Part shown: piece by piece, positions 36,833 to 59,239 of the stretch
Position numbering within the stretch: position 1 is the stretch's first letter
How the letters are laid out: each line of letters begins with the position of its first letter
Assembly: GCF_025685625.1 (NCBI RefSeq)
Contig: NZ_JAGSYI010000002.1
Coordinates: forward strand, 124,001-188,000
Reading direction: 5' to 3'
Source of the DNA: Acidicapsa acidisoli
Lineage (GTDB): Bacteria; Acidobacteriota; Terriglobia; Terriglobales; Acidobacteriaceae
Length of the DNA stretch: 64,000 nucleotides
Notes under the pieces: generated by a model
Told to the model about the DNA's origin: nothing
The model's database searches: none
The model's input: only the letters and a program-made list of their open reading frames with translations
Translations under genes and position numbers: made by a program

Positions 36833-36920
36833 GGAGAGATGGCCGAGTGGCTGAAGGCGCACGCTTGGAAAGCGTGTTTACCGCAAGGTAACGTGGGTTC
36901 GAATCCCACTCTCTCCGCCA
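36833..36920 (+). tRNA. tRNA-Ser (anticodon GGA)
   Basis: An 88-nt cloverleaf with encoded CCA. The acceptor GGAGAGA pairs with TCTCTCC. The anticodon arm CACGCTTGGAAAGCGTG presents GGA. There is a long variable arm (TTTACCGCAAGGTAA), as in class II tRNAs, and the T-loop is GTTCGAATCCC. A TACACT -10-like box lies at 36806. The 3' end is the insertion point of the downstream island. Confidence 0.95.
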
Positions 36921-36922
36921 TT
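36901..36922. other. attL: 22-bp direct repeat at tRNA-Ser 3' end
   Basis: The last 20 bases of the tRNA gene plus TT (GAATCCCACTCTCTCCGCCA, TT) recur exactly at 55829-55850 in the same orientation. The following AT-rich ~20 bp is also similar. This is the usual footprint of site-specific integration into a tRNA gene by a tyrosine recombinase. Confidence 0.85.
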
Positions 36923-37648
36923 CTTTCTCATATTTATTTGATTTTCAACGTAAGGCATAGAATAAAAGCTGCTTAGTCGAATTCCATCTCTTCTCCAGAG
37001 TCTCCAGAATCTCTCCAATGCAGTCCTTTTCGATGGTTTTGCACGACAATAGACCACCTGCACGACAAAGCAACATCGAGCGCCGGGAAGATGCAAATCC
37101 GGACCCTTGACCTTCTTGTCAGCCCACAGCACATGACGGTTCAGGGACTTCCAATAAGCGGCCCCGGGAGCACGCATGCAGGCTGGTCTGTCCCTTCCGA
37201 ATCTGAGAGCTGGCAGCCGTGGAGGAAGTACATGGATTCCTGAAGAAAGCCGACGCCACAAACTTCCAGTTGACTTCCGGAGTCCCTCGTACATGAATGG
37301 ATTCACTGGGTTTGGATTGTTCCGGCGGCTGGAACCTCCTTATCAGGTATCGCCTACGTCAATCGCCACCTTGGTCTACTGGTTCAAGCAGTAGGCTAGA
37401 GCATGACCCATCCGGTTGGCTTGCGGCCGACCTGGGGATTCACGAACAGTGAAGCACCCTTCCCTTTTCAATCTGCCAACAAATCAAACCCTGCACGCTC
37501 GAACGTTTTGTATCTGGCAGTTTCCGCTTCCTTTGGCGCGGCCAGATTCTTTGTTGACTTTCTTCCAACTCCAAGCACAAACTGTTATCGGGCCGTCCGG
37601 CCCAGGGGGCGGTGGACGCCCCTGGGTGCAGCGAACGAAGTTCTGGGG
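36923..37648. other. Left end of the island, no gene supported
   Basis: About 725 bp next to the tRNA. Several frames are open but none has a ribosome site plus protein-like composition. It may be eroded island DNA. Confidence 0.4.
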
Positions 37649-38820: not shown

Positions 38821-39150
38821 TGGTTTTCTCCATAAGGAAATTACCACTGAGTTTGATAGAGAGTGTTTGTTCTCGGGGCGACCCCGCTGGATACGCTCAA
38901 GTTCTTCCAGTCGTCACGATGAATCCGTGACTGCCGCACCATACCATGCCGCTAATCATCGACAGTGGTTAGCGTAATTGTACCCTGCGCGTCAGGCTCG
39001 GACCGGATTCCAGTCGCGCTCGGCGACGATGTGTCATCGAAGGGTGATTCGTGGTGAGATGCGTGTTTATGAGGACTTTTCTATGCGCAGCCGAAGCCTG
39101 CGCCGGAGGCGAAAGCCTGACGCTGGCGCGGCAGATTCTCCGGCAAGTAG

Positions 39151-39188
39151 GCCTTAACCTAGCGAAGGCCGAAAAAGCGGCAAAATAT
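39151..39188 (+). repeat. Left terminal inverted repeat (IRL) of the Tn3-family element
   Basis: It begins GCCTTAACCTAGCGAAGGCC and continues GAAAAAGCGGCA. It also encodes the last residues of TnpA on the minus strand (LFRPSLG, stop). It matches the outlying end at 51870-51907 at about 33 of 37 positions. Confidence 0.85.
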
Positions 39189-42163
39189 TCGCCTTCTGGT
39201 CAGCGGCTGGCCGCTTGAGCGGGAGGCACTGCCGCATATCGAGGGTGAAGGTGCCGTAGGGATTGACGTGCTGCCACTTGAGGGGCGAGAGGGCGCGGAG
39301 GTCTACTGCCGTGAGCCGATCCCGCCATTGTTCTTCCTCCAGCACCTGCTGAATCATGAGGGTATTCACGTAGACGAGGCTGATTTGCAGCAAATGCAGT
39401 GACAGCATGAGGATTTCCTGGTCTTCCAGCCTGTTGCTGGCGAACTCGCCGCCCTTCCCATAGAGGATGAAGTTGTTGGCGCTGTTCCAGTTTTTGATGA
39501 CCTGCAAGCCCTCGTGAATCTCCCGACGCAGCTGCTCCTGGCGGAGATAATCGCACAGGAAGATGGTTTTCAGGGCCTTGCCCAACTCGCACAGCGCCCT
39601 ATAGGTCGGATGCTGCACGTTGTTCTTGGTGAAACGTCGCAGGATGGATTCAGCATCCGCAGTCCCCAGGCGCAGAGCAGTCGTGAACTTGATGAGCTCG
39701 TCGTATTGCTGTTCGATGATCTCCCAATTGATTGGGCGGGTCAGGATCGGCTGCAGATTGGCGTATTTTTCCGGCGCACCACTTTGCGACCTATAAAGCC
39801 GCTGTTTCTTGAGGTTTTTCAAGCGTGGCAGAAGCTCAAACCCCAAAAGATCACTGAAAGCGAAACCGACTTCGCTCTGCCCATGAGTGTCCACGTATTG
39901 CTTCTCCACGTCCATCTCCGTGTCATGGCGCAGCACTCCTTCGATCATGGAGGAAACCTCTGAGGAAGAAGGCGATTTCAGTTGCGAGTAGATGCACGCT
40001 GAGTTCTTCTCGACGTGCCGATAGATCATGACGCCGCGACCGTTATAGCGCACGTGCCATTCAGTGATCAGGTTCTGGTCCCAGGCCCCAAACTGTTTCG
40101 AGTCCGAGGCACACGCCGTGGTTCCCTCGCCCCACAGCCTCGGATTGCGGGTGTGGAAGATAGCGTTGCATACTCTGGCGATTGCCGCTCTCAACTGTTC
40201 TTTCGTAATGTATCGCCGACGGATGTATTGCAAGTCGGCGTAGCCGTCCTCGCCTCCTCCACTGCACATTCGTTTGAGGCCGGCATTTGTTCCCAGGCCA
40301 TACAAACACAAAAGCAGGCGACGTTGCAGAAAGTCTCCATCAAGAACCTCGCGGGCACCAACCGTGCGAAACGCATCGGTAAAGTGGACGCGCAATTCCG
40401 TCTCCTTCAAGATGTCGAGCAGGTTTGTCATGGGCCAGCGTTCGACCAATGCAGCTGTTAATGCCACGATGTTGGACGGCTCGGGCAGCGCCTCCAGCGG
40501 CGACAAGACGATGCGTCCCTTGCTTTTTTTGGTGGGGACGATTTTGACTTGCTTGTCGGTTGGTAACTCAGTATCGAAGGCGGTGAGTGCGGCCTCCATC
40601 CGTGCGCGTATCTTTTGTACAAACGCTCCCGCATCACGAGGTTAGTTGAGCGCCGCGTAGTACTCGTCGCGACGCAGATCGAAATCCTGTGGCAGATCCT
40701 CGTCGGGGTTGCGAAAGCGATGCGCGCCCTTCGCCCATATTTCCTTGCAACGCACTTTTTCGCGCAATGCTGTCAGCACACACCACTCATAGGAGATGCG
40801 ATTGATCGCTCCCTCGTGCGCATCGTCCAGCACCAATTCTCGCCAATCGTCACTCACCACGCCGTCCAGCGGCACCTCCTCGCTTGTGGGAAACACTGCG
40901 GTCTTGCGATCGCGGTATTTGTAGAGCAGAGCCAGCGCATCCATCACCGGGCGATGCCGGTCGTTGTTGCACTGGAACGACAAAACCTCGACCAAAGCTG
41001 GCACAATGCGGCGGTAGTGATGGCTGTAAGATGCGCGCGTCACCACCTTCACCTGCCGTTCGTGCTTCTCGGCTGCCTCAACTTCCTGGATCAGTTCTTC
41101 CAGCGTTCTTTCGCCTACTGCGGGGTAGATTACGTCTTTCACGATCCCGTCTGGCTGGTCTTTGGCGGCTTTGGCGAGCTTGTACAGCAACCTGGCCTTG
41201 CCCACAACCTTCTTGGCAAATTTCAGAAGCTCGATGTCTACCTTCTCCTCTGCGCGCACGCCTACTCGGTGGGTTATGCGGATCAACAGTTCGACCAGGC
41301 TGTCTGTGATTTCCTTCTGTCGCTGCCAGCAGAGAGCGGCCAGCAGCGTATAACGGACTTCGGGTGGATGACGCCGCAACTCGCGAGGAGGTTCGCTGGC
41401 GGCGCGCTGGCGGTATTGTGTAACCAGCCTGGCGGGCACGCCGCGAAACAGTCCTTCCGGCAAATTCAGTGCACGCAGTTGCTGGAGCTTGGCGATTTCA
41501 TCCAGGACAGTCTCGACACTCACCGCACCGGCATCGTCTTTCACCGCGGCAAGCTCGGAGCGTATGGGAACAACGGCATCTGATCCACGTCGGCGGCACT
41601 CCCTGGGATCTGGGTGTTGACCAGAGCATCCAGGGCTTGGCGGGTGGCGGGCATAAGCTGCGCCGTGGCCTCCGCCACCATCCGTTCCTCACGCTGCCCA
41701 ACCGCCAGTCGCAAAAGACGGCGCATCCGCTCAGGTGACGGTGGTTCCAGACGCAGCGTGCGCAAATGGCCGTACGCTGCAATCTTGAATGCCTCCGCTT
41801 CTGGGTTGAATGAGGCGACCCGCTCTTTCAACCACGCAATAAAAGCCGGTTCATCTTCGGCATGGAAGAGCTGGAAACCGCAGTACTCTCGATCTGGGCG
41901 CGCTGATGGCGCTGAGTCCTCTCGCTCCATTCCTCTTCGAGGTATGCCCCCGGTGGCACACCGGTCTGGTTGGCCAAATGGAAAACGATCGTGGTTACAA
42001 CTTCCTCGCGGCGCTCTGGAAAGTGTCCTTCGAATTGAGACGTCTTGAGCAGAACAGCGAAGCTGAGCCGGGTAGCGCCAGCTTTATTGCCCAGCAAGGC
42101 GCGCTCTTCGCCGGAGAGTGTCCAGTGTTGGGCCAGCTCGTCTGGATGCCAGTCCTGCTTCAT
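39154..42163 (-). pseudogene. tnpA: Tn3-family transposase tnpA, broken by two frameshifts and a stop
   Basis: About 1,000 codons, full family length, but interrupted. The N-terminus runs from the ATG at 42163 (MKQDWHPDELAQHWTLSGEE) to a frameshift near 41,895. The second piece runs to another frameshift near 41,560-41,640. The third ends at an in-frame TAA at 40642 and the same frame resumes at once (EYYAALN, stop, [13 protein letters not shown]). The last piece keeps the catalytic core: Asp in [12 protein letters not shown], Asp in [20 protein letters not shown], and Glu in [17 protein letters not shown]. The element cannot transpose on its own unless helped in trans. Confidence 0.9.
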
Positions 42164-42249
42164 CGGCTACAAACACTCCCCGGCGCGATCGCAGGAGCGG
42201 TGGGGAATCCTGGTTTCGCAGTGGGTTGATTCGGCTGGTAGCCAATATA

Positions 42250-42330
42250 GATGGCCAAATGGGAGATGGCCAAGTAGAATTGTCTTTCGCGCTTCTTGGC
42301 CACATGGTTACAACTTGGCCAAGTGGCGTA
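42250..42330. promoter_or_regulatory. Candidate resolution site (res) upstream of tnpR
   Basis: Four copies of a TGGCCAA/TGGCCA-type motif occur within ~70 bp (around 42252, 42266, 42297 and 42315), some in inverted pairs such as TTGGCCAAGTGG. The location between divergent tnpA and tnpR is where Tn3 elements carry res. Motifs are seen; function is inferred. Confidence 0.5.
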
Positions 42331-42352
42331 TACCCAACTTGACCGCCCGCCT

Positions 42353-42985
42353 ATGAAAATCGCCCGAATCTACCTCCGAGTCTCCACCGATGATCAAGAT
42401 CTTACTCGCCAGACCGAAATCGAGCACAGTACCCGCACTGCCGGCTTTTATGTCGCCGGGGTCTACCGCGAGAAGGCCTCGGGGGCCCGCGCCGACCGGC
42501 CAGAACTGCTGCGCATGATCGCCGACCTCCAATCAGGCGAGGTTGTCGTCGCCGAAAAGATCGACCGGATCAGTCGGTTGCCACTGGCTGAGGCTGAGAA
42601 ATTGGTCGCTTCGATCAGAAGCAAGGGTGCCAAGCTGGCAGTTCCGGGCGTCGTAGACCTATCGGACCTCGCGGCAGAGGCTCACGGAGTTGCACGAATA
42701 CTTCTGGAATCTGTGCAGGAGTTGTTGCTGAAACTGGCTCTGCAAATGGCCAGAGACGACTATGAAACTCGCCGAGAACGGCAACGCCAAGGGGTACGAC
42801 TCGCCAAGATCGCTGGCAAATACATGGGTCGTATCCCTGACACTACTGCCCACCACCGCATCATCGCGCTACGCACCGCCGGCCAGACAATCAAGCAAAC
42901 CGCAGCTCTAACCGGGTGCAGCCTCAGCCAGGTCAAGCGCATCTGGGCACTGCGTCTGGCAACCGCCAGACCTGCCGAGGAATAA
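42353..42985 (+). CDS. tnpR: Serine resolvase TnpR
   Basis: A 210-residue serine recombinase. The catalytic domain starts MKIARIYLRVSTDDQDLTRQ with the nucleophile Ser in RVSTDDQ, followed by YREKASGARADRPELLRMIA, EKIDRISRLPLAEAEKLV, and a C-terminal helix-turn-helix ending TGCSLSQVKRIWAL. The ATG at 42353 is used because the frame upstream is outside the conserved region. It resolves cointegrates at res. It appears intact, unlike tnpA, and its stop lies a few bases from the right end repeat. Confidence 0.92.
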   Translation: MKIARIYLRVSTDDQDLTRQTEIEHSTRTAGFYVAGVYREKASGARADRPELLRMIADLQSGEVVVAEKIDRISRLPLAEAEKLVASIRSKGAKLAVPGVVDLSDLAAEAHGVARILLESVQELLLKLALQMARDDYETRRERQRQGVRLAKIAGKYMGRIPDTTAHHRIIALRTAGQTIKQTAALTGCSLSQVKRIWALRLATARPAEE

Positions 42986-43020
42986 CATAAGTTGCTTTTT
43001 GGCCTTCGCTAGGTTAAGGC
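42983..43020 (-). repeat. Internal terminal inverted repeat (IRR) of the Tn3-family element
   Basis: Read inward, it begins with the same 20 bases as the left end and then AAAAAGC, with one base fewer in the A-tract. Similarity fades after about 27 bases, so it is a weaker partner of the left end than the copy at 51907. Confidence 0.8.
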
Positions 43021-43193
43021 GTTTCAGGAAGGGTGAGATGAAACGTGCTTCCGTTTGCGGTCGGCAAGACCGCAAACGTAAACCAATACTCAGCGATCAA
43101 TCGAACTGAGCGAAGGAATTGGTCGAAATCGATAGGCTTGATGATGTACGAGCTACAGCGCAGCTTGTGCAGTTTCAGAATCTCTTCTTCCAT
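43014..43193 (-). pseudogene. C-terminal fragment of a response-regulator receiver, cut by the transposon end
   Basis: From about 43193 the minus strand encodes the end of a CheY-like receiver: LHKLRCSSYIIKPIDFDQFL then RSVRLIAEYWFTFAVLP. The KP motif and the following helix match Rcp1-type receivers. The reading frame ends on a TAA supplied by the transposon repeat. The N-terminal half with the phosphorylated Asp is absent from both flanks of the transposon. Confidence 0.7.
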
Positions 43194-43503
43194 CTGCAGT
43201 TACCTCTATGGATACGATAGTCCTGCCTCTTCATGGAGAATGTAATATACGTCACTCTTTCTCTGTGACTTGCGTCGCATCGTAATCACCGGTTTTCAGT
43301 GCAATCTGAAAGTAAATAACAACCAACTAATATCAACAGCTATTGTGTACCGTGGTCGAAGCACTGGGAGGTTTCAAATCATTCTGCGCCTTGCTGCAAC
43401 GGTTCATCGTGGCCGGAGATGTGCGAAAGAAGGATACGTCTCCATTCGGCTCGGCAATTGCCGTTCAATGACACGCTCACGCTCACCATTGCGACCGGAT
43501 AGC
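43194..43503. other. Noncoding gap
   Basis: About 310 bp between the receiver fragment and the end of the phosphotransacetylase-like gene. No gene or repeat is supported. Confidence 0.4.
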
Positions 43504-44496
43504 TCAGGCGCAATGAGATTCCAGCGGGTCCAGCGCATAGTGCAGCAACATCGCCACGGCACAAGAAGTTAGACGCGTCGCCGCTGAGTCCGCGCGACTC
43601 GTAAGAATCACCGGAACTTTCGTCCCCAGCACAATCCCAGCCAACTGCGCGCCCCCCAGATACTCCAGCTGCTTGGCCAACATATTGCCGGATTCAAGAT
43701 CCGGCACCACCAAGATATCCGCCTGCCCCGCCACCCGAGACACGAGCCCTTTGATCTGTGCGGCTTTCGCGCTCACTGCGGTGTCGAAGGCCAACGGACC
43801 ATCCAGCATCCCGCCAGTGATCTGACCGCGCTCGGCCATCTTGCATAGTGCAGCGGCATCGAGGGTTGATTTGATCTTGGGATTAACAGTTTCAATCGCG
43901 GACAGCAAGGCTACTTTCGGTTCGGGGATCCCAAGTGCATGAGCAAGTTCGATAGCGTTTTGGACGATGTGAACCTTGTCCTCCAACTCAGGCTCGATGT
44001 TGATCGCGGCATCTGTGATAAGCAGAGTGCGCGGGTAGGCTGGCGTATCCATCACAAACACGTGTGAGATCCGCCTTGAGGTGCGCAGCCCGGTATCCCG
44101 AGCCATCACCACGCGCATCAGTTCATCGGTATGCAGGCTACCCTTCATGAGAGCCTGAGACTGCCCGCTGCGGCACATGGCTACGCTGATCTGGGCCGCT
44201 AGTTCTTCCGTTGCGGCATCAACAATCGGATAGCCGGTGATATCCAGCCGAGCCTTCCTGGCCAATGCATCTAATGCCATCGTCGGTCCAACCAGCGTGG
44301 CCTTGATGATTCCGGCCTGAGCCGCCTCAGTTGCGCCGCGCAGCGCCACCTCGGAGAGTGGCCAGCAAACTGTGGTGGTGATTGCCGGCAGATTTTTGCA
44401 ACGCTCCAGAAACTGATAAAAGACGTGAAAGTCCGGAGGATGGCTGACCAATGGATCCACGGTAGTCGATTCCACCAGACTTGCGAGATCGCTCAT
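43504..44496 (-). CDS. Phosphate acetyl/butyryltransferase family enzyme
   Basis: A 330-residue member of the Pta/Ptb family, which exchanges CoA and phosphate on a short acyl group. Family signatures are LVGPTMALDALARKARLDIT, RDTGLRTSRRISHVFVMDTP, TLLITDAAINIEPELEDKVH, LSAIETVNPKIKSTLDAAAL and GGMLDGPLAFDTAVSAKAAQ. AAGGAG lies 8 nt before the ATG at 44496. No acetate or butyrate kinase lies nearby. It is the last gene on the strand of the cytochrome operon, 148 bp after it, and may add substrate-level ATP formation to the electron-transfer module. Confidence 0.9.
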   Translation of the reverse strand: MSDLASLVESTTVDPLVSHPPDFHVFYQFLERCKNLPAITTTVCWPLSEVALRGATEAAQAGIIKATLVGPTMALDALARKARLDITGYPIVDAATEELAAQISVAMCRSGQSQALMKGSLHTDELMRVVMARDTGLRTSRRISHVFVMDTPAYPRTLLITDAAINIEPELEDKVHIVQNAIELAHALGIPEPKVALLSAIETVNPKIKSTLDAAALCKMAERGQITGGMLDGPLAFDTAVSAKAAQIKGLVSRVAGQADILVVPDLESGNMLAKQLEYLGGAQLAGIVLGTKVPVILTSRADSAATRLTSCAVAMLLHYALDPLESHCA

Positions 44497-44643
44497 CAAG
44501 AGTTCTCCTTACAGGATCGGACTGCCTCTAGAATCATCTCGTCCGCTCTGAGCGTCAAGACTCGATCTGGAGGGTTGAAGACGATCGTTTGGCGCACTAA
44601 AGGCTATCCGGTTTACGCTCGCATTCAATCAAGTTCTCTACGT

Positions 44644-46080
44644 CTATTGGAGACCTATATCGGCCAACTGCTTGGGGTTGGGCTCGTCGACAGCAACCAG
44701 ATTATGGCACATTGAGCAGTCATTCGTGATGCTAGTGCCATTCTTCGCCGTATGACTTCCGTCGTGACAACGCATACACCCTCCTGTCAAGGCGGCGGAG
44801 TGACCTATGTTGTTTGGATGCGTGCCCCATGTGACTTTCATGAATGGAAAGACATTCTGGTTATAGATCAAAACGAGTGCATTGGCCGCTTGCTCCACCT
44901 GCACGCGTTGGCTGTTCCAGATATCCGGATATTGAGATCGATAGAAGCCTTCGAGACCACCAGTGATTTTGGCGGTTGCCTCCTCAGCGGAGGTGTAGCT
45001 GGCTCTTATGAGCACGAGTCCTTGCTTGTGAACGAACAGCAGGGAGGCGGAAGGAGTGCCAGCCGCCATGTCCTTGTTGAGCGCGTCCTCTGGAGTATCG
45101 AAGGAGTGCGCTGGACGATTGTGGCAGTCAATGCAGTCCATCTCATGCCTCTGGCCGGTAATGGTTCCGCTTGTCGAACCAGAGTTGAAATCAGTGGCCG
45201 AACCATCGTCATTTCGCTTGCTGACGAAGTTGATGGTCTGGCGGTGGGAGTCGGTGGCAACGAATTCAATATGGCCAAGGTGGGCGCCGTGAATGCCACT
45301 GAGCTTGCCAAATTGATTGCGGCCGCCGATATGCATCACAATTAGGGTTCGCGAGACGGCGTTCTTTTCATCATCACCGTAGGATGTTTTTACCAGGAGC
45401 TTGTCGCCGATCGATCGATCCGGATTATGACAGTTGAGACAGGTTGCGCTGGCGGGAGGCAGCCTGTCTCCAGGCATAATCGGTTGCGGGTAGTTGTGAA
45501 AAATGACCATGAGCAACTGCCTGGTGCCGTTCATTTTGGCGTGGACATAGCCGGGAACTCCGGGCGCGACATGACATTCTGTACACGCAACGCCGGAATG
45601 CGAGGCCACGCCATAAGCCTTCCACTCAGGAGCCATGACGTGGCAGCCCTGGCCGCAGAAGTTGGGCGTATCCATGTACGCCACGCCGCGGTAACTTGCA
45701 GTGCCGACAATGACAAAATTGATGAAGGTGGCTACGACAACAAAATTGACTCCGTGGCGAAAGATGGGGTCGGCAAAGTCAATTTTGGGATAGACCGCAG
45801 GCAGGCGGTCGAGAGCTACCAGGTGACGATGGCGCAGCCACATGCCGATTGGAATGAGAAGCAGGCCAAGGACAAAGATCGCAGGCAGGCAGAGATCGAA
45901 GATGATCCCGATGTAGGGATTGGTCGAACCGCCGTGGCCGAAGATATCCACGACCCAGAAGCCGACCAGGGTCAGGGCTGACGCGCTGGTGAGCGCTCCG
46001 CCAATCAAGCTGATCGGGTTGTTCCCGAAAAAGAGAGATGGCCTGAGCCACTCCTTCTCAAATCTGGTGAACCAGCTCAT
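44644..46080 (-). CDS. NapC/NirT/ImcH-like inner-membrane hexahaem cytochrome c
   Basis: A 478-residue protein with three N-terminal membrane helices (about residues 22-48, 58-83 and 110-133) followed by a periplasmic domain. Six haem sites are visible: CGQGCH, CTECH, CLNCH, CIDCH, CMRCH and CSMCH. The first pair, in NFCGQGCHVMAPEW and GVACTECHVAPG, matches the NapC/NirT quinol-dehydrogenase family. The three-helix layout and length resemble ImcH of Geobacter, which has one more haem. It should take electrons from the quinol pool and pass them to periplasmic cytochromes. Last cytochrome of a four-gene operon with the decahaem protein and porin. Confidence 0.88.
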   Translation of the reverse strand: MSWFTRFEKEWLRPSLFFGNNPISLIGGALTSASALTLVGFWVVDIFGHGGSTNPYIGIIFDLCLPAIFVLGLLLIPIGMWLRHRHLVALDRLPAVYPKIDFADPIFRHGVNFVVVATFINFVIVGTASYRGVAYMDTPNFCGQGCHVMAPEWKAYGVASHSGVACTECHVAPGVPGYVHAKMNGTRQLLMVIFHNYPQPIMPGDRLPPASATCLNCHNPDRSIGDKLLVKTSYGDDEKNAVSRTLIVMHIGGRNQFGKLSGIHGAHLGHIEFVATDSHRQTINFVSKRNDDGSATDFNSGSTSGTITGQRHEMDCIDCHNRPAHSFDTPEDALNKDMAAGTPSASLLFVHKQGLVLIRASYTSAEEATAKITGGLEGFYRSQYPDIWNSQRVQVEQAANALVLIYNQNVFPFMKVTWGTHPNNIGHSAALTGGCMRCHDGSHTAKNGTSITNDCSMCHNLVAVDEPNPKQLADIGLQ

Positions 46081-46098
46081 ACCTGCCCTGTCCCTCGA

Positions 46099-46425
46099 CT
46101 ACTTCTTCTGCAAAGTGTGGATGTAGCCGATCACTCCCTTGATCTCCGCGTCCGTGAGCTTGCCCTTATAAGCGGGCATCTTCCCTTTGCCGTTCGTGGT
46201 AGCTTCGATCAGTTCGGCGTCGGACTTCTGCAGGATCTGCGGGTCGTTGAAGGGAATTGCCTTCATCGACTTGCCGGCCGGCGTAGCGCCAAGTCCGTCG
46301 GCGCCATGGCACATCTGGCATTTCGCCTTGTAGGTATCGCCGCCAAGGCCTTGGGCAAGGGCAGGAATGCTGGTGACGACAAGGGTGAGAGCAACGGCAA
46401 CAGCCTGGGAGGTGCGATTCAGCAT
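46099..46425 (-). CDS. Small periplasmic cytochrome c (monohaem, class I)
   Basis: A 108-residue precursor with a signal peptide (residues 1-24, ending PALAQ). The haem site is CQMCH in KAKCQMCHGADGLG and the axial Met is in GKGKMPAYKGKLTDAEIKGV. AAGGAG precedes the ATG. It lies 18 bp upstream of the NapC-like gene and downstream of the barrel gene, so it is part of the operon. Its likely job is to shuttle electrons between the inner-membrane cytochrome and the decahaem protein. Confidence 0.92.
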   Translation of the reverse strand: MLNRTSQAVAVALTLVVTSIPALAQGLGGDTYKAKCQMCHGADGLGATPAGKSMKAIPFNDPQILQKSDAELIEATTNGKGKMPAYKGKLTDAEIKGVIGYIHTLQKK

Positions 46426-46479
46426 GGGAGATCTCCTTTTGAATTCAGGGCGGGCACGATCGACGACCGAGTTGAAAAT

Positions 46480-48747
46480 TCAGAACGCATAGTTTACCGA
46501 GAGCGTGTAGAGGTTACCGCGAAAGTTCCGGGGCGCCGTGGGCCCAATGGGCGATCCTTCGCCGTAGCCGAAGTAGTTGTAATCGGCCTTCCAGGACCAG
46601 TTCTTCTGAATATCCATGACGACATTGGCGTAAGGCGACTGATACTGAGACTGCAGTGATCCATTCACCTGACGTAGATTGATCGCGTCGCTGTTGCCAT
46701 TGACCGCGCTCATGCGATAGCCGCCGTTCAGATGAACACGCTTCACGGGGGCCAGCATGAATGCCAACGATCCGAATTGCGTCGGCGCGTTGTAATATCC
46801 GGTGCTCGCAAACGGCGTTCCGGCTGCAACACATACATCCGGTGCCGTACTGGCATTGGGCGGGGCGGGCGTGGATGCGTAGCACTCGATTGTGCTCGAA
46901 TAGACGCTGTCGTAGCCGTAGTTCATGTCCAACGACCACTTCTCGCTGGGTGCAATCGAGGCGCCAACGGAGAAGTCGCGATTGTGCTCCAGATGATTGA
47001 CAGTCTGCACGTTATCGCTGCTCTCACGAATGTTGATTGCACCCGAGAGGGTAAGCCATCCCTGCGGCTTGTAGGTACTGCGCAGGCGGTAGTGTTCCAT
47101 GTGGCGCGGGCTGATGCGGGTAAAGGCGTTATCCGCATACATGGCGTCAACGTCGAAGTTGACACGCCATTGTGGGCTCGGCCGCAACGCAGAGCCGAAA
47201 AGACCCCAGTTTTCGTGAATAGGAATGAAGTCTCCGCCGGCGTCGGTGATGATGCGGCTGCGATAGCGGTAGCCAAGCGAAACTCGCGCCCGCGACGTAG
47301 CGTCCCAGGCCACGAGGAAGGTATTGGTCTTGGTCTTCTGATTGAGGAATTCAGAATCGGCCGTTACTGCGGGCGGATTGGGGGAAATCACCGGGGTTGC
47401 CAACAACGATGCCCCCAGATAGTCGGTTTCGCTAAGGTTATTTCTTCCCGGCACACGGAAGTTCCAGAAATTGAAGAGATTTGTTGCAGTAACTGTCGGG
47501 GTAATCTGCCATGTCACGCCGAGGTCGCCATTGACATCCACCCGGCGCGCATTGGCTGAGCCAGTTACAACCGATTCGCGTAGTGTTGTGCGGCTTTCAA
47601 GGCCGTTGAATGTTTCGTTGAAATTGTTTAGATTGGCGGTCGCTCCGCTATAAAGCAGCCGCCCATTGAATGTGAAATGTGGAACATCTGCGCTCTGGAA
47701 TCGGAGTTGTTCGCTGGGCATCAGCGTACGAGTCGGCGCAGTACGGCTGTACGAAAGAAAGGCATTACAGGTTGGATTGACAGCCCCAGTCGAGGTAAAT
47801 GGTGCGGCGCAGGGAGTCTTCCATACCGAAGAGATATCGATTCCCAGACTGACCGGCGTGCCATTGGACAGTTGATAATTCAGGCCACCAAGTCCCCAGG
47901 TGGTATCACCCTTGTAATTGGTCACGAATTCGTCATAACTCACGGTCGTGTGCTTGAAAAGTCTCCAGTCGAGGCCGCCTGTCCAACTGTCAGTCATATT
48001 GCGCCAGTCTTGTGTGAGCAGAGCTTCGGTGCCAAAATGCACGGAACTGTAGGATGGCCCTTCGCTGATGCTGTGGTTGTACCCGAAGCGCACGCTGACG
48101 CGCGACAACGGAGCCAGAGTAAGGTTGAGGTCGGTCATGCGACGCACGGTGTTATAGAGATGCGGCGAATCGAGAATAGGCAGAAACGGTGTGGATGCCG
48201 GCGGAATCAGAGGATTGGCCAGCAGGTCATAATCGAAGTACTGGCGGTCGCGGCGAAAGCTTCCTCGGAAATCGTAGATCTTTCCCTTGGAGATATTCAA
48301 GAGCGATACGCTGTTAGGATCCCCTGCGTACCCGAAGCTACTCGTCGTAAGCGTATCGAACAGCTTCGCTTTGAACGGATCTACGGCATGCATATCTAAC
48401 GATTGATTCAGGACGCGCGGTCCCGACTGCAGATTGACCATTGTGTCGTAGACCGCGCCGCTGCCGGAGTAATCCGCAATGTGGCCGCCAAGCTCGAGCG
48501 CCTGATGAATCACGTAGCCGTAACGAATGTTGTCTCCAGGTGCTGGCGGAGTTGTGTTATCGATAGCAGCCGGTACTTTCGCAGGTGCGCCTGCCTGTGC
48601 TGTGGCCGGATCGCTAGTCGGCGCGACCGTCTGGGCGGTCGCAGCCGAGGTATCCGTCGTCATACTTGTGCATACTGCCAGGGCGCACGCGAGCCGGACA
48701 GTGCGGGAGAGACGTGCCGTGAGCAATGTCGACAATGCGCGTATCAT
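46480..48747 (-). CDS. MtrB/PioB-like outer-membrane beta-barrel protein
   Basis: A 755-residue exported protein starting at the ATG at 48747 (GAGAGG 8 nt upstream). After the signal peptide and a Pro/Ala-rich linker (residues ~30-70) the sequence alternates like a large barrel: RYGYVIHQALELGGHIADYS, SFRRDRQYFDYDLLANPLIP, LTLAPLSRVSVRFGYNHSIS. It ends in the aromatic signature YTLSVNYAF. The size, the DLNLTLAPLSRVSVRFGY-type strands and the neighbouring decahaem gene identify the MtrB/PioB family, whose barrel sheathes a periplasmic decahaem cytochrome to form a conduit through the outer membrane. Confidence 0.88.
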   Translation of the reverse strand: MIRALSTLLTARLSRTVRLACALAVCTSMTTDTSAATAQTVAPTSDPATAQAGAPAKVPAAIDNTTPPAPGDNIRYGYVIHQALELGGHIADYSGSGAVYDTMVNLQSGPRVLNQSLDMHAVDPFKAKLFDTLTTSSFGYAGDPNSVSLLNISKGKIYDFRGSFRRDRQYFDYDLLANPLIPPASTPFLPILDSPHLYNTVRRMTDLNLTLAPLSRVSVRFGYNHSISEGPSYSSVHFGTEALLTQDWRNMTDSWTGGLDWRLFKHTTVSYDEFVTNYKGDTTWGLGGLNYQLSNGTPVSLGIDISSVWKTPCAAPFTSTGAVNPTCNAFLSYSRTAPTRTLMPSEQLRFQSADVPHFTFNGRLLYSGATANLNNFNETFNGLESRTTLRESVVTGSANARRVDVNGDLGVTWQITPTVTATNLFNFWNFRVPGRNNLSETDYLGASLLATPVISPNPPAVTADSEFLNQKTKTNTFLVAWDATSRARVSLGYRYRSRIITDAGGDFIPIHENWGLFGSALRPSPQWRVNFDVDAMYADNAFTRISPRHMEHYRLRSTYKPQGWLTLSGAINIRESSDNVQTVNHLEHNRDFSVGASIAPSEKWSLDMNYGYDSVYSSTIECYASTPAPPNASTAPDVCVAAGTPFASTGYYNAPTQFGSLAFMLAPVKRVHLNGGYRMSAVNGNSDAINLRQVNGSLQSQYQSPYANVVMDIQKNWSWKADYNYFGYGEGSPIGPTAPRNFRGNLYTLSVNYAF

Positions 48748-48760
48748 GCGAAGCAGCCTC

Positions 48761-49711
48761 TCACTTGAAGAACACGCTGCTGGCGTTTGAGCCATGGATC
48801 TGAACGTGGCAAACTGTGCAAGCCTGATATTGATTAGCCTGATTGTGGAATGAAGGCGTGCCAGGCGCGGTAAAGTTCATCGAAGCAGAATGGCACTGCA
48901 GGCACAGCGAGTTCACATTATTGCGAGTGAGCAAACGCGGATTTGGCGACCCATGGGGAAAATGACAGGAAGTGCAGCCTTCGGTCTTGAGCGGAGGATG
49001 TTCATACACGAACGGACCGGCAGTTTCTGCGTGGCACTCGGTGCAGATGGCATTCTGGTCGGCGCTCGACTTGAGTAATTTGTCCTCAAACGTGCCATGT
49101 GGATTGTGGCAGTCGCTGCATTTCATTAATCCTTCATTCACTTTGTGGTGGAATGGCTGGGCAAAGGCGGCCTTCGCGTCGGTATGGCAGCCATAGCACA
49201 GCTTCGGCTCCGATACCTTCAGTAAATTCGCTTCGCTCTGGAAGACATGACTGCTGTGGCAGCTTGTGCAGCTAACACCGGCTGCCCCATGCGAGGAGCG
49301 TTCGAAATTCGCGTGTGTGTCTGCGTGGCAACTCAGGCACTTGTCATCCACCATCTTCGGTGTTGCTTTTGAGAACTGAAATATCTTAGTAGCATCGCCG
49401 CCGGACTCCACATGCGCCTTGCCGGGACCGTGGCAGCTCTCGCATGTAACGCCTTTTCCACCATGCATAAGAGCAAGCTTCGAATGAGGATTGATAGCGA
49501 ACTTCGTTGAGACCTCAGCGTGGCAAGTGGCGCAGGTCTCAGACCCGACGTAATCGGCAGGATTGATCGAGGGATCTTTTCTGACCGATGCATTTGTGCG
49601 GCCTGGATCAGATTTCTGTTTGTCTTGACCAGCAGCATCTACTACTCGGTGAGGCATACAAAGCCAGAACAGCACCGTAATCATCGCTGAAGCAAAGAGC
49701 AAACGCCGCAT
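48761..49711 (-). CDS. DmsE/MtrA-like decahaem c-type cytochrome
   Basis: A 316-residue exported protein with ten CxxCH haem sites: CATCH, CESCH, CLSCH, CTSCH, CYGCH, CSDCH, CTECH, CTSCH, CLQCH and CTVCH. The signal peptide covers residues ~1-26. The number and spacing of haems and the size are those of MtrA/DmsE/PioA proteins, which insert into an MtrB-type barrel. The stop is 14 bp before the barrel gene's start. First gene of the operon. No outer-surface MtrC-like cytochrome is found in the window, so the terminal acceptor is unknown (metal, DMSO-like or other). Confidence 0.93.
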   Translation of the reverse strand: MRRLLFASAMITVLFWLCMPHRVVDAAGQDKQKSDPGRTNASVRKDPSINPADYVGSETCATCHAEVSTKFAINPHSKLALMHGGKGVTCESCHGPGKAHVESGGDATKIFQFSKATPKMVDDKCLSCHADTHANFERSSHGAAGVSCTSCHSSHVFQSEANLLKVSEPKLCYGCHTDAKAAFAQPFHHKVNEGLMKCSDCHNPHGTFEDKLLKSSADQNAICTECHAETAGPFVYEHPPLKTEGCTSCHFPHGSPNPRLLTRNNVNSLCLQCHSASMNFTAPGTPSFHNQANQYQACTVCHVQIHGSNASSVFFK

Positions 49712-50264
49712 GCATAATCACCGTAACCTTTTAGTGGCAATGACGACATAGCTCTGTGACTTCCAGCCGTTTTCGAGGTTTCAACACTCTGTTGAACGCG
49801 ATCACACATGTCACGAGTTTTGATGTCAGAGCAGGTTAACTAGCGTACCTTGTGCTGAGTATGGGCGCACAGACTCGACGGAATCTGAGCACTCTAGCTC
49901 ATAGAGTTCCCATTCTTCCAAGCAGCCTATGCTCGGCGGACTTGCAGAGCGGCTGAGGCTCTGGATTGGATCACCCTAGCTTTGGGAGGGCAGGCAGGAT
50001 TCCCTCGTGGCCTACTTTGCGGCTGGCGACATCAATGTTGGCTTTACCCTGGTCTGGTCGGCGTAGCATTAACTGCAGAGGGAAACAAGACCCTCCGCAT
50101 CCATCGCCCTGATAACTTCTGAAAGGATTGGGGCTCCTTTCCCGTCTACGAAGGTAGCTCCGCGGATATGACGCCGCATCTCCTTTCGCTTTCCCTAAAA
50201 CTAATGATTGGGCCACACGTTGCCCTAACTCGGTAGCTCAGAGGCCGACAACCAAGGAGTTCTC
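49712..50264. other. Divergent intergenic region between the cytochrome operon and the stress-protein gene
   Basis: About 550 bp between divergent starts. It must contain the promoters of both. I see no convincing gene, repeat or clear box pair. Confidence 0.4.
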
Positions 50265-51182
50265 ATGGATATCTCCAAGCAATTTCCCTTCGAAACGATC
50301 GTTGTGGCGTCAGACTTTTCACAAAAATCTTCGTCCACACTTCGCTATGCCCAAGCCATAGCGCTCCAGCATGGCGCTAAGCTAGTGCTCGTACATGTGA
50401 TAGATCCCATTGGCTACGCGTTTCCCACGGGGGTGCCTAGCGCCCTCTCCGTCGATCAAACGGCTCGCGAAGAACTGAATCGGGTCGAAGAGCAGCTACG
50501 CGCACAGGGGATTTCGGTTCACTCAGTTGTTCAGACGGGCGACATTTGTGAGCTCATCCTGCAGACGGTGCGTGACCACGGTGGGGATCTTCTGGTTCTT
50601 GGAACCCGCGGCAAGACGGCGGTTGGTCGGGCGGCGCTCGGAGCGATCGCGCGTCAACTCCTGGCAAAGACCGAGTTCCCCATCCTCACCGTCACACCCG
50701 ATGTCGAATTCCTGATTCCATGGGCGGGAAAATGGAGAACCGTTCTGCTGGCAACAGATTTTTCCACTTGCTCCCTGGCCGCATTGACCGCTGCACACCG
50801 CATCGCGCATCGGCTGTTGACGGTTCTCCACTCTTCCGTGACAGAAAGCGACACAGAGCATCGCAGTCATCTGGAACAGTTGCGCTTTCTCGCGCCCATG
50901 AACGAGTCTCACACCGTTCCCGTCGAACACATAGCGACCACTGGCGAAGCTGGACAGGTGATCGTGGACTTTGTCCTCAAGCATCAAATCGATCTAGTAG
51001 TCCTGGGCAGTCCTGCGACGATGCTGTCGGAGGAAGATATGCACACCAGCACCGTGCTCCAGGTGATATCCGGAGTCCACTGCCCTGTGCTTTGTATCCC
51101 TGCTCCCCGGGAGAAGGGAAAGTCGGCGACGTCGGCGATTGAATCCGGGAGAGAGGAAACTGCAGCACTGCAGAAAGCTTAG
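50265..51182 (+). CDS. Universal stress protein, tandem UspA domains
   Basis: A 305-residue protein made of two Usp domains. The first (residues ~6-150) starts FETIVVASDFSQKSSSTLRY and ends with the ATP-loop-like GTRGKTAVGRAALGAIARQL. The second (~155-290) starts RTVLLATDFSTCSLAALTAA and ends with LGSPATMLSEEDMHTSTVLQ, where the GxGxxG-S loop is altered. AAGGAG is 6 nt before the ATG. It is divergent from the cytochrome operon. Usp proteins often accompany respiratory or anaerobic genes; a regulatory role is possible. Confidence 0.9.
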   Translation: MDISKQFPFETIVVASDFSQKSSSTLRYAQAIALQHGAKLVLVHVIDPIGYAFPTGVPSALSVDQTAREELNRVEEQLRAQGISVHSVVQTGDICELILQTVRDHGGDLLVLGTRGKTAVGRAALGAIARQLLAKTEFPILTVTPDVEFLIPWAGKWRTVLLATDFSTCSLAALTAAHRIAHRLLTVLHSSVTESDTEHRSHLEQLRFLAPMNESHTVPVEHIATTGEAGQVIVDFVLKHQIDLVVLGSPATMLSEEDMHTSTVLQVISGVHCPVLCIPAPREKGKSATSAIESGREETAALQKA

Positions 51183-51739
51183 GTTTCCTGACATCAAGTT
51201 ACCCCTTTCCCCGGGCGAGACCTGGAAATTCCTCAACGAAATCTTCATCTTCGTCATTTTGGTGTTCCTGGATATGTCTCGATCTTCATTCGACAGGTTG
51301 CGCTTTCGATCGTAGTGGAGGTCGACATTGAGAATCGTCATACTCGGCGCCGGTGTTCAAGGTACGGTCTTCGCCGTGACGACGTGCGAAACTTTCTCCG
51401 CCAAGGGGAAGCAGCAAAACTCCGGAGCCTGCTGGCATCGATCGACGCCTGGCAGTTGAAGTTTCAGAAACATTCACCTAGCGGAATCGCATCGGATTGG
51501 CGTTAGACGACCAAACTCTGCGGCACCCTCGGGTTGCGAAGTGGTAATGGCGCGGCCCTTTTAGAAATCCATGGAGTCGCTTCGTAGCCTCGGATCACCA
51601 GTCTTTCAGGGACCGTTCAGACACAGGTGTTCTGGGTGCGCAAGGTACTTCCGTTCGAGGATTTCGGCCCATTCTGAGCGTATACTCGAAGACCAGGATA
51701 CGAATCTTTCGTTGCCCAGGCGGACGGACGTTACTTGCG
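51183..51739. other. Gene debris, including a Rossmann N-terminus
   Basis: About 550 bp with no intact gene. At 51328, after GGAGG, a TTG starts LRIVILGAGVQGTVFAVT, the GxGxxG start of an NAD(P)/FAD-binding protein. The frame then loses protein-like character. The rest looks like eroded coding DNA. Confidence 0.45.
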
Positions 51740-51904
51740 CAACTCCAGGATGAGTTGAAGCAGTTGCAGCGTCGGATAGAAAGAGCCGATGCTGTCATTT
51801 TCGAGGCAGCCGGAGAGCACGAAGTCTGCCAGCGTTTGATGGCGATCCCCGGAATGCCGACTCCTACAGCTAATATGCCGTTTTTTCCGCCTTCGCTAGG
51901 TTAA
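51740..51904 (+). pseudogene. C-terminal fragment of an IS110-family transposase, cut by the third transposon end
   Basis: The plus strand reads QLQDELKQLQRRIERADAVI then FEAAGEHEVCQRLMAIPGMP, the coiled helix and 'L..IPG' start of the IS110-family transposase_20 domain. The frame enters the end repeat and stops at a TAA there (PPSLG, stop). The catalytic N-terminal half is missing. Confidence 0.6.
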
Positions 51905-51907
51905 GGC
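51870..51907 (-). repeat. Third, outlying terminal repeat of the Tn3-family element
   Basis: Read inward from 51907 it begins GCCTTAACCTAGCGAAGGC and continues GGAAAAAACGGCA, matching the left end at 39151 at about 33 of 37 positions. It has the same orientation as the internal end at 43020, so it can pair with the left end to define a 12.8-kb unit. Confidence 0.8.
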
Positions 51908-51949
51908 CTCGTACAGTGCCAACGACCGGCGTCATTGCTCTCGGGAAGC

Positions 51950-53533
51950 TCAAAGAGTTTTCAGGAATGCGATGAGCGCTCGGCGATCTTCTTCGGACAA
52001 ATCCAATCCAAAGGGATGACCTTTGACCGAATAGCTCTCGGCGCCATAAGGTTTGAACCCTGTCGGCTCATAGTCGTCTTGCTGGCGTTTGGGATCGAAC
52101 CAATCTTCGAGAGACGCGCACCAGCCGCTGTGCCCGAACATGCTGCGGTACCAGACGCCCTTCAGCGACGGCACTTTGTAATAACCCGTGCCTCGTCTCG
52201 TTTTTAAGGTCATATTTGGATCTGTCCCAACCGAGAACGGTGCGATGTCGAATTGTTTTCGCGCCTCAGGAGGCACACGGAAACCTTCAGCCGGCGTGAG
52301 CTTGTTGTTGGTGTAAAGAGGAGGCGTGTGACAGGTTCCACACCCTTCGCTCTCAAATATCTTTTTACCGCGATTGGCGAGTGCATCGAACTTGTTCGGA
52401 TTGGGAGGTGGTTCGAGAGCGTACAGGTACATCGCCAATGCATAAAGCTGCTCGTCACTGTATCGACCGCCGACGGCGATCGGATCGTCGGGTTCCGGGC
52501 GTTTTGTCGAGTAGTGAAAATCCGCGGGCACGAAACCGTCGTAAGAAGCAAGATCATCAGCACCCTGGTTCAATGCCGCGTAGCGCATCAGATCCGCGAT
52601 GGAACGGTGCTTTTGCAGTCCTGTGTGGTCCAGGTAACGGCGATCCTTAACGCCAATAAGGTCTGGAATCTGGAGTGGATAAAAGAGGCTGCTCCGATGC
52701 CGGGCTGTTACTTCCGCAGGCATGGCCGCATGCGCGGCGATCAACTGGTCCGTGGTCATGTTGTCTATTGGCATCGATGGATCAGGCTTCTGCCATGGAG
52801 CTGCGTACAACGAATGGTCAAGGTGTCGAAGGTCGGCCTCAGCTTTCCGGGCATCATCGGGATTGGCCAACCGTCTGCCGAAGTACCAAGCTTTGCTTTT
52901 CTCAAACGGGAAGTTCCCCTGGGCACCCTCTAGAACACTTCCATTGGGCATGACTCGCGTGTGGCAAAAGCCGCAGGCAAAATCGCCGAGGTCCACCTCG
53001 CCCTGCTTTCGAATGACATATCGGACAAACGGTACGACTCCATCCTTGGCAACAGGAACACCAGTTGCCTGATACCACTTTAGATCTCGCACGTCGTTCA
53101 TGCTGGCGATCCGATGCGTTGTGAAATAGATCGGCGTGTTGAAGACGATTCGTCCGGCCGCGATCCAGTCTTCACTAGAGCTGAGATTGGGCTTGTGAGC
53201 TGATTCGTCCCACAGGACCTCGGGAGCCTGTTGCTTGAGCCACTCCATATAGTTCGGTGGTTCATGCCCCGGAGCGTAGACCGGGTAGCTCTTGTAGATA
53301 GGACGAACGGGAATGCGGTAGTAATAATCGGAGGCAATGTGCTTTGGCGATCCGACCGGGTCTGCGAGCGGCAGCTCCAATGTCGCGATCGCTTCGTCAT
53401 CCCACACCCGCGGAACCGAAGGCGTGAAAGTTGAGCGTTGGTGCTGGGCCTGGGCATGCGAGAACAGCCACAACCCACTCACGATGACCACCAGCAGAAA
53501 CACAACCTGGGACATCAACCTCAACCTTTTCAT
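51950..53533 (-). CDS. Dihaem c-type cytochrome, RoxA/MauG-like
   Basis: A 527-residue exported protein with two haem sites, CGFCH (DFACGFCHTRVMPNG) and CGTCH (ESEGCGTCHTPPLY). The signal peptide covers residues 1-29. The C-terminal region SLKGVWYRSMFGHSGWCASL and GHPFGLDLSEEDRRALIAFL is typical of the dihaem peroxidase/RoxA-type group, which oxidises or cleaves organic substrates or reduces peroxide. The full substrate is unknown. Its end is 43 bp from the third transposon repeat, and it is divergent from a regulator gene. Confidence 0.85.
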   Translation of the reverse strand: MKRLRLMSQVVFLLVVIVSGLWLFSHAQAQHQRSTFTPSVPRVWDDEAIATLELPLADPVGSPKHIASDYYYRIPVRPIYKSYPVYAPGHEPPNYMEWLKQQAPEVLWDESAHKPNLSSSEDWIAAGRIVFNTPIYFTTHRIASMNDVRDLKWYQATGVPVAKDGVVPFVRYVIRKQGEVDLGDFACGFCHTRVMPNGSVLEGAQGNFPFEKSKAWYFGRRLANPDDARKAEADLRHLDHSLYAAPWQKPDPSMPIDNMTTDQLIAAHAAMPAEVTARHRSSLFYPLQIPDLIGVKDRRYLDHTGLQKHRSIADLMRYAALNQGADDLASYDGFVPADFHYSTKRPEPDDPIAVGGRYSDEQLYALAMYLYALEPPPNPNKFDALANRGKKIFESEGCGTCHTPPLYTNNKLTPAEGFRVPPEARKQFDIAPFSVGTDPNMTLKTRRGTGYYKVPSLKGVWYRSMFGHSGWCASLEDWFDPKRQQDDYEPTGFKPYGAESYSVKGHPFGLDLSEEDRRALIAFLKTL

Positions 53534-53703
53534 GACTGACCTCCGGGGAAACCTCGCAAGGTGGAATCACCGCCAAGCCTGCACATCTTCCTATGTTCCT
53601 GATTTTGTTGGCAATGGAGATAGTCTGTAGAATCCTGTATTTTTCCTTTAGCGGCGGCCGGGGTACTTTCTAGCCAGGACATTGCCGGTTCACCTGAGAG
53701 GTG

Positions 53704-55828: not shown

Positions 55829-55850
55829 GAATCCCACTCTCTCCGCCATT
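55829..55850. other. attR: copy of the tRNA-Ser 3' end
   Basis: An exact 22-bp copy of 36901-36922 in the same orientation (GAATCCCACTCTCTCCGCCA, TT), with no tRNA body upstream. It marks the right border of the island. Confidence 0.85.
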
Positions 55851-56027
55851 TTTCATATTAACTTATTGATTTTATTTAACTTATAGTGACTGTCGAGGGT
55901 CGAATCACCCTTGTTATTCCTTGTGAAATCTGACTAGACCTCTCCGACGCTATCCCCTCATCTGTTCAATCGCAAAAGCTAGACTTTCCACCCGCATCTT
56001 GCCTTCCCTCTTTGCGACAGCTAGACA

Positions 56028-59181: not shown

Positions 59182-59239
59182 GACAAAACACCCCTTCCTG
59201 GAAATTGGAATTCCTCATCTGATGAATCGCAAACGTCCG

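What the first reader, a model, noticed from the sequence alone, without database searches (positions are those of the whole stretch)
43504..51182. MtrAB/ImcH-like porin-cytochrome operon for electron export on a mobile island
Four adjacent minus-strand genes make a complete route: inner-membrane NapC/NirT/ImcH-like hexahaem cytochrome, small cytochrome c, MtrB-like barrel and DmsE/MtrA-like decahaem cytochrome. I count 17 CxxCH sites. That the genes sit within a tRNA-Ser island and between transposon ends suggests extracellular respiration is acquired here. A phosphotransacetylase-like gene and a universal stress protein travel with it. No MtrC-type surface cytochrome is visible, so the acceptor end differs from Shewanella.
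Basis: partly seen in the sequence, partly recalled or inferred. Interest (0 to 1): 0.9.

Follow-up and report, generated by a model that had tools for sequence, protein, structure and literature searches.

The report
Electron-export operon carried by a transposon
A soil acidobacterium carries, between the ends of a rare Tn3-type transposon next to a tRNA gene, a full set of genes that looks able to pass respiratory electrons out of the cell; the gene set is common in its family, but this mobile setting was not seen in the relatives examined.

Summary
On the minus strand lie a decahaem MtrA/DmsE-type cytochrome, a 755-residue barrel, a monohaem cytochrome c and an ImcH-type inner-membrane cytochrome: 17 haem motifs, one of them CX3CH, a mark of ImcH. 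The barrel matches no MtrB/PioB sequence profile, but its predicted fold is closest to chain B of the Mtr complex (6R2Q). The block lies between 39-nt Tn3-type inverted repeats (39149-39187, 51871-51909; 35 of 39 identical) with a broken tnpA, a resolvase, a phosphotransacetylase-like gene and a universal stress protein, inside a tRNA-Ser island with an att-like repeat (36901-36945, 55829-55873). The repeat's 19-base core occurs three times in the 7.1-Mb genome, all here. The conduit is widespread in Acidobacteriaceae (80 loci kept); none of these, as fetched, has this transposase or resolvase. Gene trees place or allow this copy beside its nearest congeners (support moderate), so it looks like a lineage-native operon relocated by a rare transposon. 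One paper found no mtrAB next to imcH, another no complete mtr/omc operon in Acidobacteria; here conduit and ImcH type share an operon. Electron export is likelier than import, but direction was not tested. New variant of a known kind.

The parts
36833..36920 (+). tRNA-Ser (GGA), insertion site of the island
   Evidence: ARAGORN; in relatives the same tRNA lies beside the same GH2 gene in 6 of the 9 loci fetched (GH2)
36901..36945 (+). left att-like repeat (3' end of the tRNA plus 25 bp)
   Evidence: direct repeat D2, first 22 nt identical to the right copy
39149..39187 (+). Tn3-type terminal inverted repeat, left
   Evidence: 35 of 39 identical to the outer right repeat; same core beside tnpA in two Deinococcus Tn3 elements
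39154..42163 (-). tnpA, Tn3-family transposase, broken into at least four frames
   Evidence: PF01526 E 1.5e-132 for 39154-40599; DUF4158 E 1.5e-15 for 41828-42163; the two middle frames gave no Tn3 hit and are assigned by position
42353..42985 (+). tnpR-like serine resolvase
   Evidence: PF00239 E 1.2e-19
42996..43020 (-). inner copy of the inverted repeat (first part only)
   Evidence: 25 nt, 96% complementary to the left repeat
43504..44499 (-). phosphate acetyl/butyryl-transferase-like gene (cargo)
   Evidence: PF01515 E 3e-46; NF006045 and NF008852 over their cut-offs
44644..46080 (-). ImcH-type inner-membrane cytochrome: three hydrophobic segments, CX3CH, five CX2CH
   Evidence: PF03264 E 7.6e-7; NrfH chain 2j7a_C E 8e-5; alignment A2; motif count; hydropathy
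46099..46425 (-). monohaem cytochrome c (c6/cbb3 type)
   Evidence: PF13442 E 4.6e-14; nearest solved chain 7o38_A E 4.9e-11
46480..48747 (-). outer-membrane barrel, MtrB-like fold, 755 aa
   Evidence: AlphaFold2 pLDDT 73.2, pTM 0.63; Foldseek top hit 6r2q_B E 3e-14, TM 0.59/0.68
48761..49711 (-). decahaem cytochrome, DmsE/MtrA family
   Evidence: TIGR03508 263 bits, cut-off 192; 6r2q_A E 1.3e-39; 10 CX2CH
50265..51182 (+). universal stress protein, two Usp stretches (cargo)
   Evidence: PF00582 E 6.9e-37
51871..51909 (-). Tn3-type terminal inverted repeat, outer right
   Evidence: inverted repeat I1
55829..55873 (+). right att-like repeat
   Evidence: 85% in the BLAST alignment; 80% ungapped

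Best explanation
A 12.8-kb Tn3-family transposon (39149-51909), nested in a tRNA-Ser island, carries an Acidobacteriaceae porin-cytochrome operon as cargo. Proposed working: the ImcH-type protein takes electrons from quinol in the inner membrane through its first (CX3CH) haem region, passes them along its other haems to the small cytochrome c or directly to the decahaem protein, and the decahaem protein, held in the barrel of about 26 strands, carries them across the outer membrane without a surface MtrC. The likely role is an electron sink (ferric iron, humics or another outside acceptor) when oxygen is short. Shown: gene content, haem motifs, repeats, predicted fold of the barrel. Inferred: protein partners, direction, acceptor, and that this transposon moved the operon.
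For: Decahaem: TIGR03508 over its cut-off, 6r2q_A hit, 10 CX2CH in 18 of 18 rows, this genome included. Barrel: 6r2q_B is the top Foldseek hit at E 3e-14, TM 0.59/0.68; the other 49 hits listed, mostly TonB-type receptors, start at E 2.7e-9 and reach TM 0.46 at most; the decahaem gene lies just upstream of it in 76 of 80 loci. ImcH: three hydrophobic segments and 1 CX3CH + 5 CX2CH in 14 of 14 rows, this genome included, and in 15 of 16 further loci, one having 4 CX2CH; PMC6295460 gives this pattern for ImcH and implicates it only in quinol oxidation (section read). Transposon: 39-nt repeats, 35 of 39 identical; the 19-base core is found 3 times in the genome, all here, and in 1 of 60 relatives with 2 mismatches; two Deinococcus Tn3 elements have the same core beside tnpA; order IR-tnpA-tnpR-cargo-IR. 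Island: 22-nt identical repeat from the tRNA 3' end. Position: no operon gene in the 9 tRNA-Ser loci fetched from relatives (one of them, L058, ends at the tRNA).
Against: No 5-bp target duplication at the outer ends, so the 39149-51909 unit is not proven to have jumped as one. The inner repeat could close a smaller 3.9-kb transposon. tnpA is broken. No integrase among the island frames tested. The AlphaFold model of the ImcH-like protein is poor (pLDDT 55.2). In the ImcH and decahaem trees no starred set of up to half the rows holds the window's copy. Edaphobacter aggregans DSM 19364, which has the operon (L105), is listed as aerobic in PMC5900883 (passage), and that paper concluded that such strains do not respire iron in the Shewanella/Geobacter way.
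Confidence: 0.68

Rival explanations
1. Electron import: the same four parts work like MtoA-MtoB-MtoD-CymA of Sideroxydans and bring electrons from Fe(II) into the quinone pool.
For: The make-up is the same (decahaem, barrel, small cytochrome c, inner-membrane NapC-type cytochrome); PMC10654088 describes the Mto route (passages). No MtrC-type partner over the cut-off, as in Fe(II)-oxidising clusters mentioned in PMC4245776 (passages).
Against: The inner-membrane protein is of the ImcH kind, so far implicated only in quinol oxidation (PMC6295460), not a tetrahaem CymA. No RuBisCO match in this genome, 1 fragment in 61 genomes; other carbon-fixation routes were not tested.
Confidence: 0.17
2. 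Not a respiratory route to minerals: the conduit feeds a particular outside reductase (as DmsEF does) or serves as a redox vent under stress.
For: The decahaem gene matches the DmsE family best; a universal stress protein and a PTA-like gene lie beside it; no surface cytochrome over the cut-off; several relatives are described as aerobes (PMC5900883).
Against: No DmsA-type reductase among the 19 frames of 38-64 kb given to Pfam (18 of them from this stretch, one from 34101-36713); USP and PTA are not conserved partners (9 and 3 of 80).
Confidence: 0.13
3. The outer repeat is a left-over of another Tn3 copy, and the operon lies between two elements by accident; it was never cargo of this one.
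For: Three copies of the repeat, no target duplication, broken tnpA.
Against: The outer repeat matches the left one over the full 39 nt (35 of 39), the inner one only over about 25 nt, so the outer one is the better partner end.
Confidence: 0.3
4. The operon came by horizontal transfer from outside the genus.
For: G001, next to the four-species group in the RpoB tree (94.0% identity), gave no decahaem, barrel or ImcH match at the thresholds used. The transposase is rare in the family: this genome and 1 other of 398. Mtr clusters are known to be mobile (PMC8805035, passages).
Against: The decahaem tree joins this copy with G011 and G002 (87/90), the barrel data allow it (p-AU 0.53), and the ImcH tree has it with G004, G011 and G002 (93/85): its RpoB neighbours. 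None of these supports is starred.
Confidence: 0.15

Closest known systems
MtrAB of Shewanella (PDB 6R2Q)
   Same: 10-haem cytochrome plus large barrel; sequence match of the decahaem protein, fold match of the barrel
   Different: No MtrC over the cut-off; barrel 12% identical in the fold alignment and outside PF11854; inner-membrane partner ImcH-type, not CymA
ImcH of Geobacter (as described in PMC6295460)
   Same: Three TM segments, CX3CH next to the third, further CX2CH motifs, NapC/NirT-like stretch
   Different: Six haem motifs, not seven; stands in one operon with a decahaem-barrel pair, while that paper found no mtrAB/mtoAB beside imcH
GSU2203/GSU2204 families (NCBIfam)
   Same: Decahaem 225 bits to NF041028, barrel E 2.7e-5 to NF041027
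   Different: Both below the curated cut-offs (325 and 350 bits)
MtoABD-CymA of Sideroxydans
   Same: Same four functional parts (PMC10654088, passages)
   Different: ImcH-type in place of tetrahaem CymA
Mobile mtrCAB loci (PMC8805035)
   Same: Conduit genes near transposase genes or tRNA genes, accessory cytochromes as passengers (passages)
   Different: No mtrC; here both terminal repeats of a transposon enclose the operon; the Acidobacteriia of that paper (unclassified or Bryobacterales) had no inner-membrane quinone oxidoreductase nearby
Tn3-family transposons of Deinococcus plasmids
   Same: Transposase 73-76% identical in the three best plasmid hits; same repeat core beside tnpA in the two that were read
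   Different: Neighbouring genes unrelated; tnpA annotated as one whole gene there

Membership tests
MtrAB/DmsEF porin-cytochrome conduit | Periplasmic decahaem cytochrome of the MtrA/DmsE family | tested here: met
   TIGR03508 263 bits over cut-off 192; 6r2q_A E 1.3e-39; 10 CX2CH
MtrAB/DmsEF porin-cytochrome conduit | Barrel of the MtrB/PioB sequence family (PF11854) | tested here: not met
   No match up to E 1; no match in the genome (none of that search's 14 control genomes was over the cut-off, so sensitivity is not shown)
MtrAB/DmsEF porin-cytochrome conduit | Barrel with MtrB fold | tested here: met
   6r2q_B first of 874 matches, E 3e-14, TM 0.59/0.68; that chain B is MtrB is recalled, the listing says 'Structure of the Mtr complex'
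MtrAB/DmsEF porin-cytochrome conduit | The two proteins form a complex that conducts electrons | not testable with these tools
   Only single chains could be folded
MtrCAB | Surface decahaem MtrC/OmcA | tested here: not met
   TIGR03507 best 27.9 bits against cut-off 209.3 in this genome
ImcH | Three N-terminal TM segments | tested here: met
   Hydropathy peaks within 23-47, 53-84, 106-130
ImcH | CX3CH next to the TM domain plus 5-9 CX2CH | tested here: met
   CX3CH at 142, CX2CH at 166, 214, 316, 435, 455
ImcH | Sequence similarity to Geobacter ImcH itself | not tested
   No Geobacter ImcH sequence was compared
Tn3 family | DDE transposase of the Tn3 type, intact | tested here: not met
   PF01526 present but the gene is broken into at least four frames
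Tn3 family | About 38-bp terminal inverted repeats at both ends (length recalled) | tested here: met
   39 nt, 35 identical
Tn3 family | 5-bp target duplication (recalled) | tested here: not met
   CAAGT before 39149, CGTAC after 51909
tRNA-borne genomic island | Direct repeat of the tRNA 3' end at the far border | tested here: met
   36901-36945 and 55829-55873
tRNA-borne genomic island | Integrase gene | tested here: not met
   No integrase among the island frames given to Pfam; short frames were not all scanned
MtoABD-CymA | Tetrahaem CymA-type quinone reductase | tested here: not met
   Six-motif ImcH type instead

The most novel reading that the evidence does not exclude
A Tn3-family transposon that carries a self-sufficient quinol-to-outside electron conduit (ImcH + cytochrome c + MtrAB type) as cargo, so that extracellular respiration can move as one transposable unit between sites and cells of Acidobacteriaceae.
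Probability: 0.35. Interest if true: 0.72.

Novelty: new variant of a known kind. Interest (0 to 1): 0.52.

Why it matters
Two published readings leave Acidobacteriaceae without a full export route: PMC5900883 saw mtrA/mtrB homologues in several strains, among them Edaphobacter aggregans DSM 19364, but no complete mtr/omc operon (passages), and PMC6295460 found no mtrAB next to imcH. The E. aggregans DSM 19364 contig fetched here (L105) holds decahaem, barrel, cytochrome c and ImcH-type genes in a row, and 28 of 80 loci show all four compactly. So a cultured soil strain makes the question testable. If the transposon frame is right, it also gives a concrete vehicle for the mobility of such conduits.

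Tried and rejected
Foreign origin of the operon: first suggested by low identities to G002/G011 (decahaem 71-73%, barrel 66-67%, ImcH 68-69%, against RpoB 97.3%), then put low because larger trees keep or allow this copy with G002/G011. tRNA enrichment near the operon: 3 tRNAs in the 33 loci scanned, no more than my rough estimate of chance (not computed in a call); dropped. An IS110-like remnant at 51548-51877, guessed by eye: Pfam gave no support. FNR or CRP box upstream of the decahaem gene: only 2-mismatch matches near 49791, no control run. Structure of the ImcH-like protein: pLDDT 55.2, not used. Shi 2014 (PMC4245776) was checked for Koribacter or Acidobacteria: no occurrence, against my recollection. 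In the RpoB tree (23 rows) four rows (G009, G010, G012, G014) were read in a wrong frame (22-38% identity) and are disregarded, though they were in the tree as built. For the larger trees 23 of the 80 named loci were offered; 16, 23 and 20 gave long enough ImcH, barrel and decahaem rows. The inner-repeat identity printed (14 of 39) is one base out of register; one search is used instead.
Full report
What is there. The window is part of a 7.1-Mb, 18-contig genome. By barrel sequence its nearest named kin are Acidobacteriaceae: Granulicella, Edaphobacter, Silvibacterium, Bryocella and many metagenome bins. On the minus strand, in order of transcription, lie a decahaem cytochrome (48761-49711), a barrel (46480-48747), a monohaem cytochrome c (46099-46425), a NapC/ImcH-like cytochrome (44644-46080) and a phosphotransacetylase-like gene (43504-44499); a universal stress protein gene points the other way at 50265-51182.

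Decahaem and barrel. The decahaem protein is over the cut-off of the DmsE-family model TIGR03508 (263 against 192 bits) and matches 6r2q_A at E 1.3e-39 (the archive labels that chain with another enzyme's name, its identity as MtrA is recalled). The 18 genome rows (this genome included) and 20 named loci counted have ten CX2CH each. The barrel has no PF11854 match and only a sub-cut-off match to the GSU2204 family (E 2.7e-5). An AlphaFold2 model from 18 aligned sequences (pLDDT 73.2, pTM 0.63) shows about 26 strands by my count. Foldseek puts 6r2q_B of the Mtr complex first at E 3e-14 with TM 0.59/0.68; the next hit is a siderophore receptor at E 2.7e-9, and the 49 further hits listed stay at TM 0.46 or below. 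So it works like MtrB by fold and by its partner, while sequence membership in PF11854 was tested and not met.

Inner-membrane protein. Three hydrophobic segments (within 23-47, 53-84, 106-130), then a CX3CH at 142 and five CX2CH; the CX3CH is invariant in 15 of 15 aligned, and 1 CX3CH + 5 CX2CH holds in 14 of 14 genome rows and 15 of 16 further loci. PMC6295460 (passages and the ImcH section read) gives this pattern for ImcH, counts 19 ImcH homologues in Acidobacteria, implicates ImcH in quinol oxidation only, and states that no mtrAB/mtoAB was found beside imcH. In the 80 loci kept (of 108 that encode a relative) the decahaem gene starts within 2.5 kb upstream of the barrel in 76, an ImcH-type gene starts within 4.5 kb of the barrel start on its downstream side in 34 and within 8.5 kb in 41, a cytochrome c within 4 kb in 46, and all four stand compactly in 28; 11 of the 80 loci end within 4.5 kb of the barrel start. 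Ten of these loci are, by equal contig length, places already taken from the genome search.

Acceptor end and direction. The OmcA/MtrC model TIGR03507 gives nothing over its cut-off in this genome (best 27.9 against 209.3 bits); 2 of 61 genomes, in other families of the class, are over it. RuBisCO gave no match here, with one fragment in 61 genomes. These, and the ImcH type, favour export; import in the manner of MtoABD-CymA is not excluded.

Transposon frame. Inverted repeats of 39 nt (35 identical) lie at 39149-39187 and 51871-51909, enclosing a Tn3-type transposase (its stop lies inside the left repeat), a resolvase and all the cargo; a third, partial copy at 42996-43020 lies between resolvase and cargo. 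The 19-base core occurs three times in the whole genome, all here; allowing two mismatches, 1 of the 60 relatives has one copy. In the family this transposase is rare: this genome and one other (63%) of 398 at E 1e-150. None of the 80 named loci, as fetched with up to 8 kb on each side, nor the 20 regions gave a TnpA or resolvase match at the thresholds used. tnpA is broken and there is no target duplication, so the element looks old and is now probably immobile on its own.

Island. The 3' end of tRNA-Ser and the 25 bases after it are repeated at 55829-55873, the first 22 bases without a change. Of nine loci fetched around this tRNA in relatives, six have the same GH2 gene beside it and none shows an operon gene; one of the six (L058) ends at the tRNA and says nothing about what follows. 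No match of the window's right flank was found behind the tRNA in these loci or in the next 60 kb of G001, so an empty site could not be shown base by base. No integrase was recognised among the frames scanned.

History. Most of 14 congeners have the genes (decahaem 13, one of them partial; barrel 11; ImcH 12), by shared flank genes in at least four different settings: this transposon, G002/G011, the group around G013/G014, and G004. The right-hand flank of the G002/G011 setting is colinear in G000, G001, G004, G006 and G008, with no match to the operon in the 20 kb fetched; the left-hand flank matched only in G008. RpoB groups G000 with G004, G011 and G002 (98/98, with four misread rows elsewhere in that tree). 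The ImcH tree has the same four together (93/85). The decahaem tree joins G000 with G011 and G002 (87/90), the barrel data allow it (p-AU 0.53), but both reject the four with G004 (p-AU 1e-5 for decahaem, 5e-67 for barrel): the conduit pair of G004 belongs to another deep type. None of the supports around the window's copy is starred. So the outer-membrane pair and the inner-membrane protein have parted company at least once, and the window's operon is most simply a lineage-native operon that ended up in a foreign transposon.

Known and new. Mobility of mtrCAB with transposases and tRNA genes is in print (PMC8805035, passages), as are mtrA/mtrB homologues in Acidobacteriaceae (PMC5900883, passages), porin-cytochrome clusters in a Holophaga genome (PMC7399161, passages) and ferric iron reduction by Acidobacterium and Acidicapsa under low oxygen (PMC8790237, passages). 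I found no paper on a Tn3-borne conduit (paper searches) or on an ImcH-MtrAB operon in Acidobacteria; I saw the listings, and passages only of the papers cited, and the library holds open-licence papers only. Hence: new variant of a known kind.

Noticed in passing
window 51950-53533 (-) and 53701-55230 (+): A di-haem cytochrome c peroxidase-like protein (sub-cut-off matches) and a regulator with a Trans_reg_C domain and WD40-like repeats lie between the outer transposon repeat and the right att-like repeat.
   Followed up: no
G004:C5 (L041) against window 44644-49711: ImcH of G004 groups with the window's, but its decahaem-barrel pair is of another deep type: inner- and outer-membrane modules seem to be exchanged separately.
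   Followed up: partly
L220 (G056), L221 (G059): Two genomes of other families in the class have OmcA/MtrC-type genes over the cut-off close to a decahaem gene on the same contig.
   Followed up: no
window 55873-60859: About 5 kb of lower G+C (0.49-0.52) with hardly any long frame, just outside the right att-like repeat.
   Followed up: no
L041 6905-7885: A PTA-like gene 81% identical to the window's stands near the operon in G004, on the other side and strand; higher identity than any operon gene there (46-70%).
   Followed up: no
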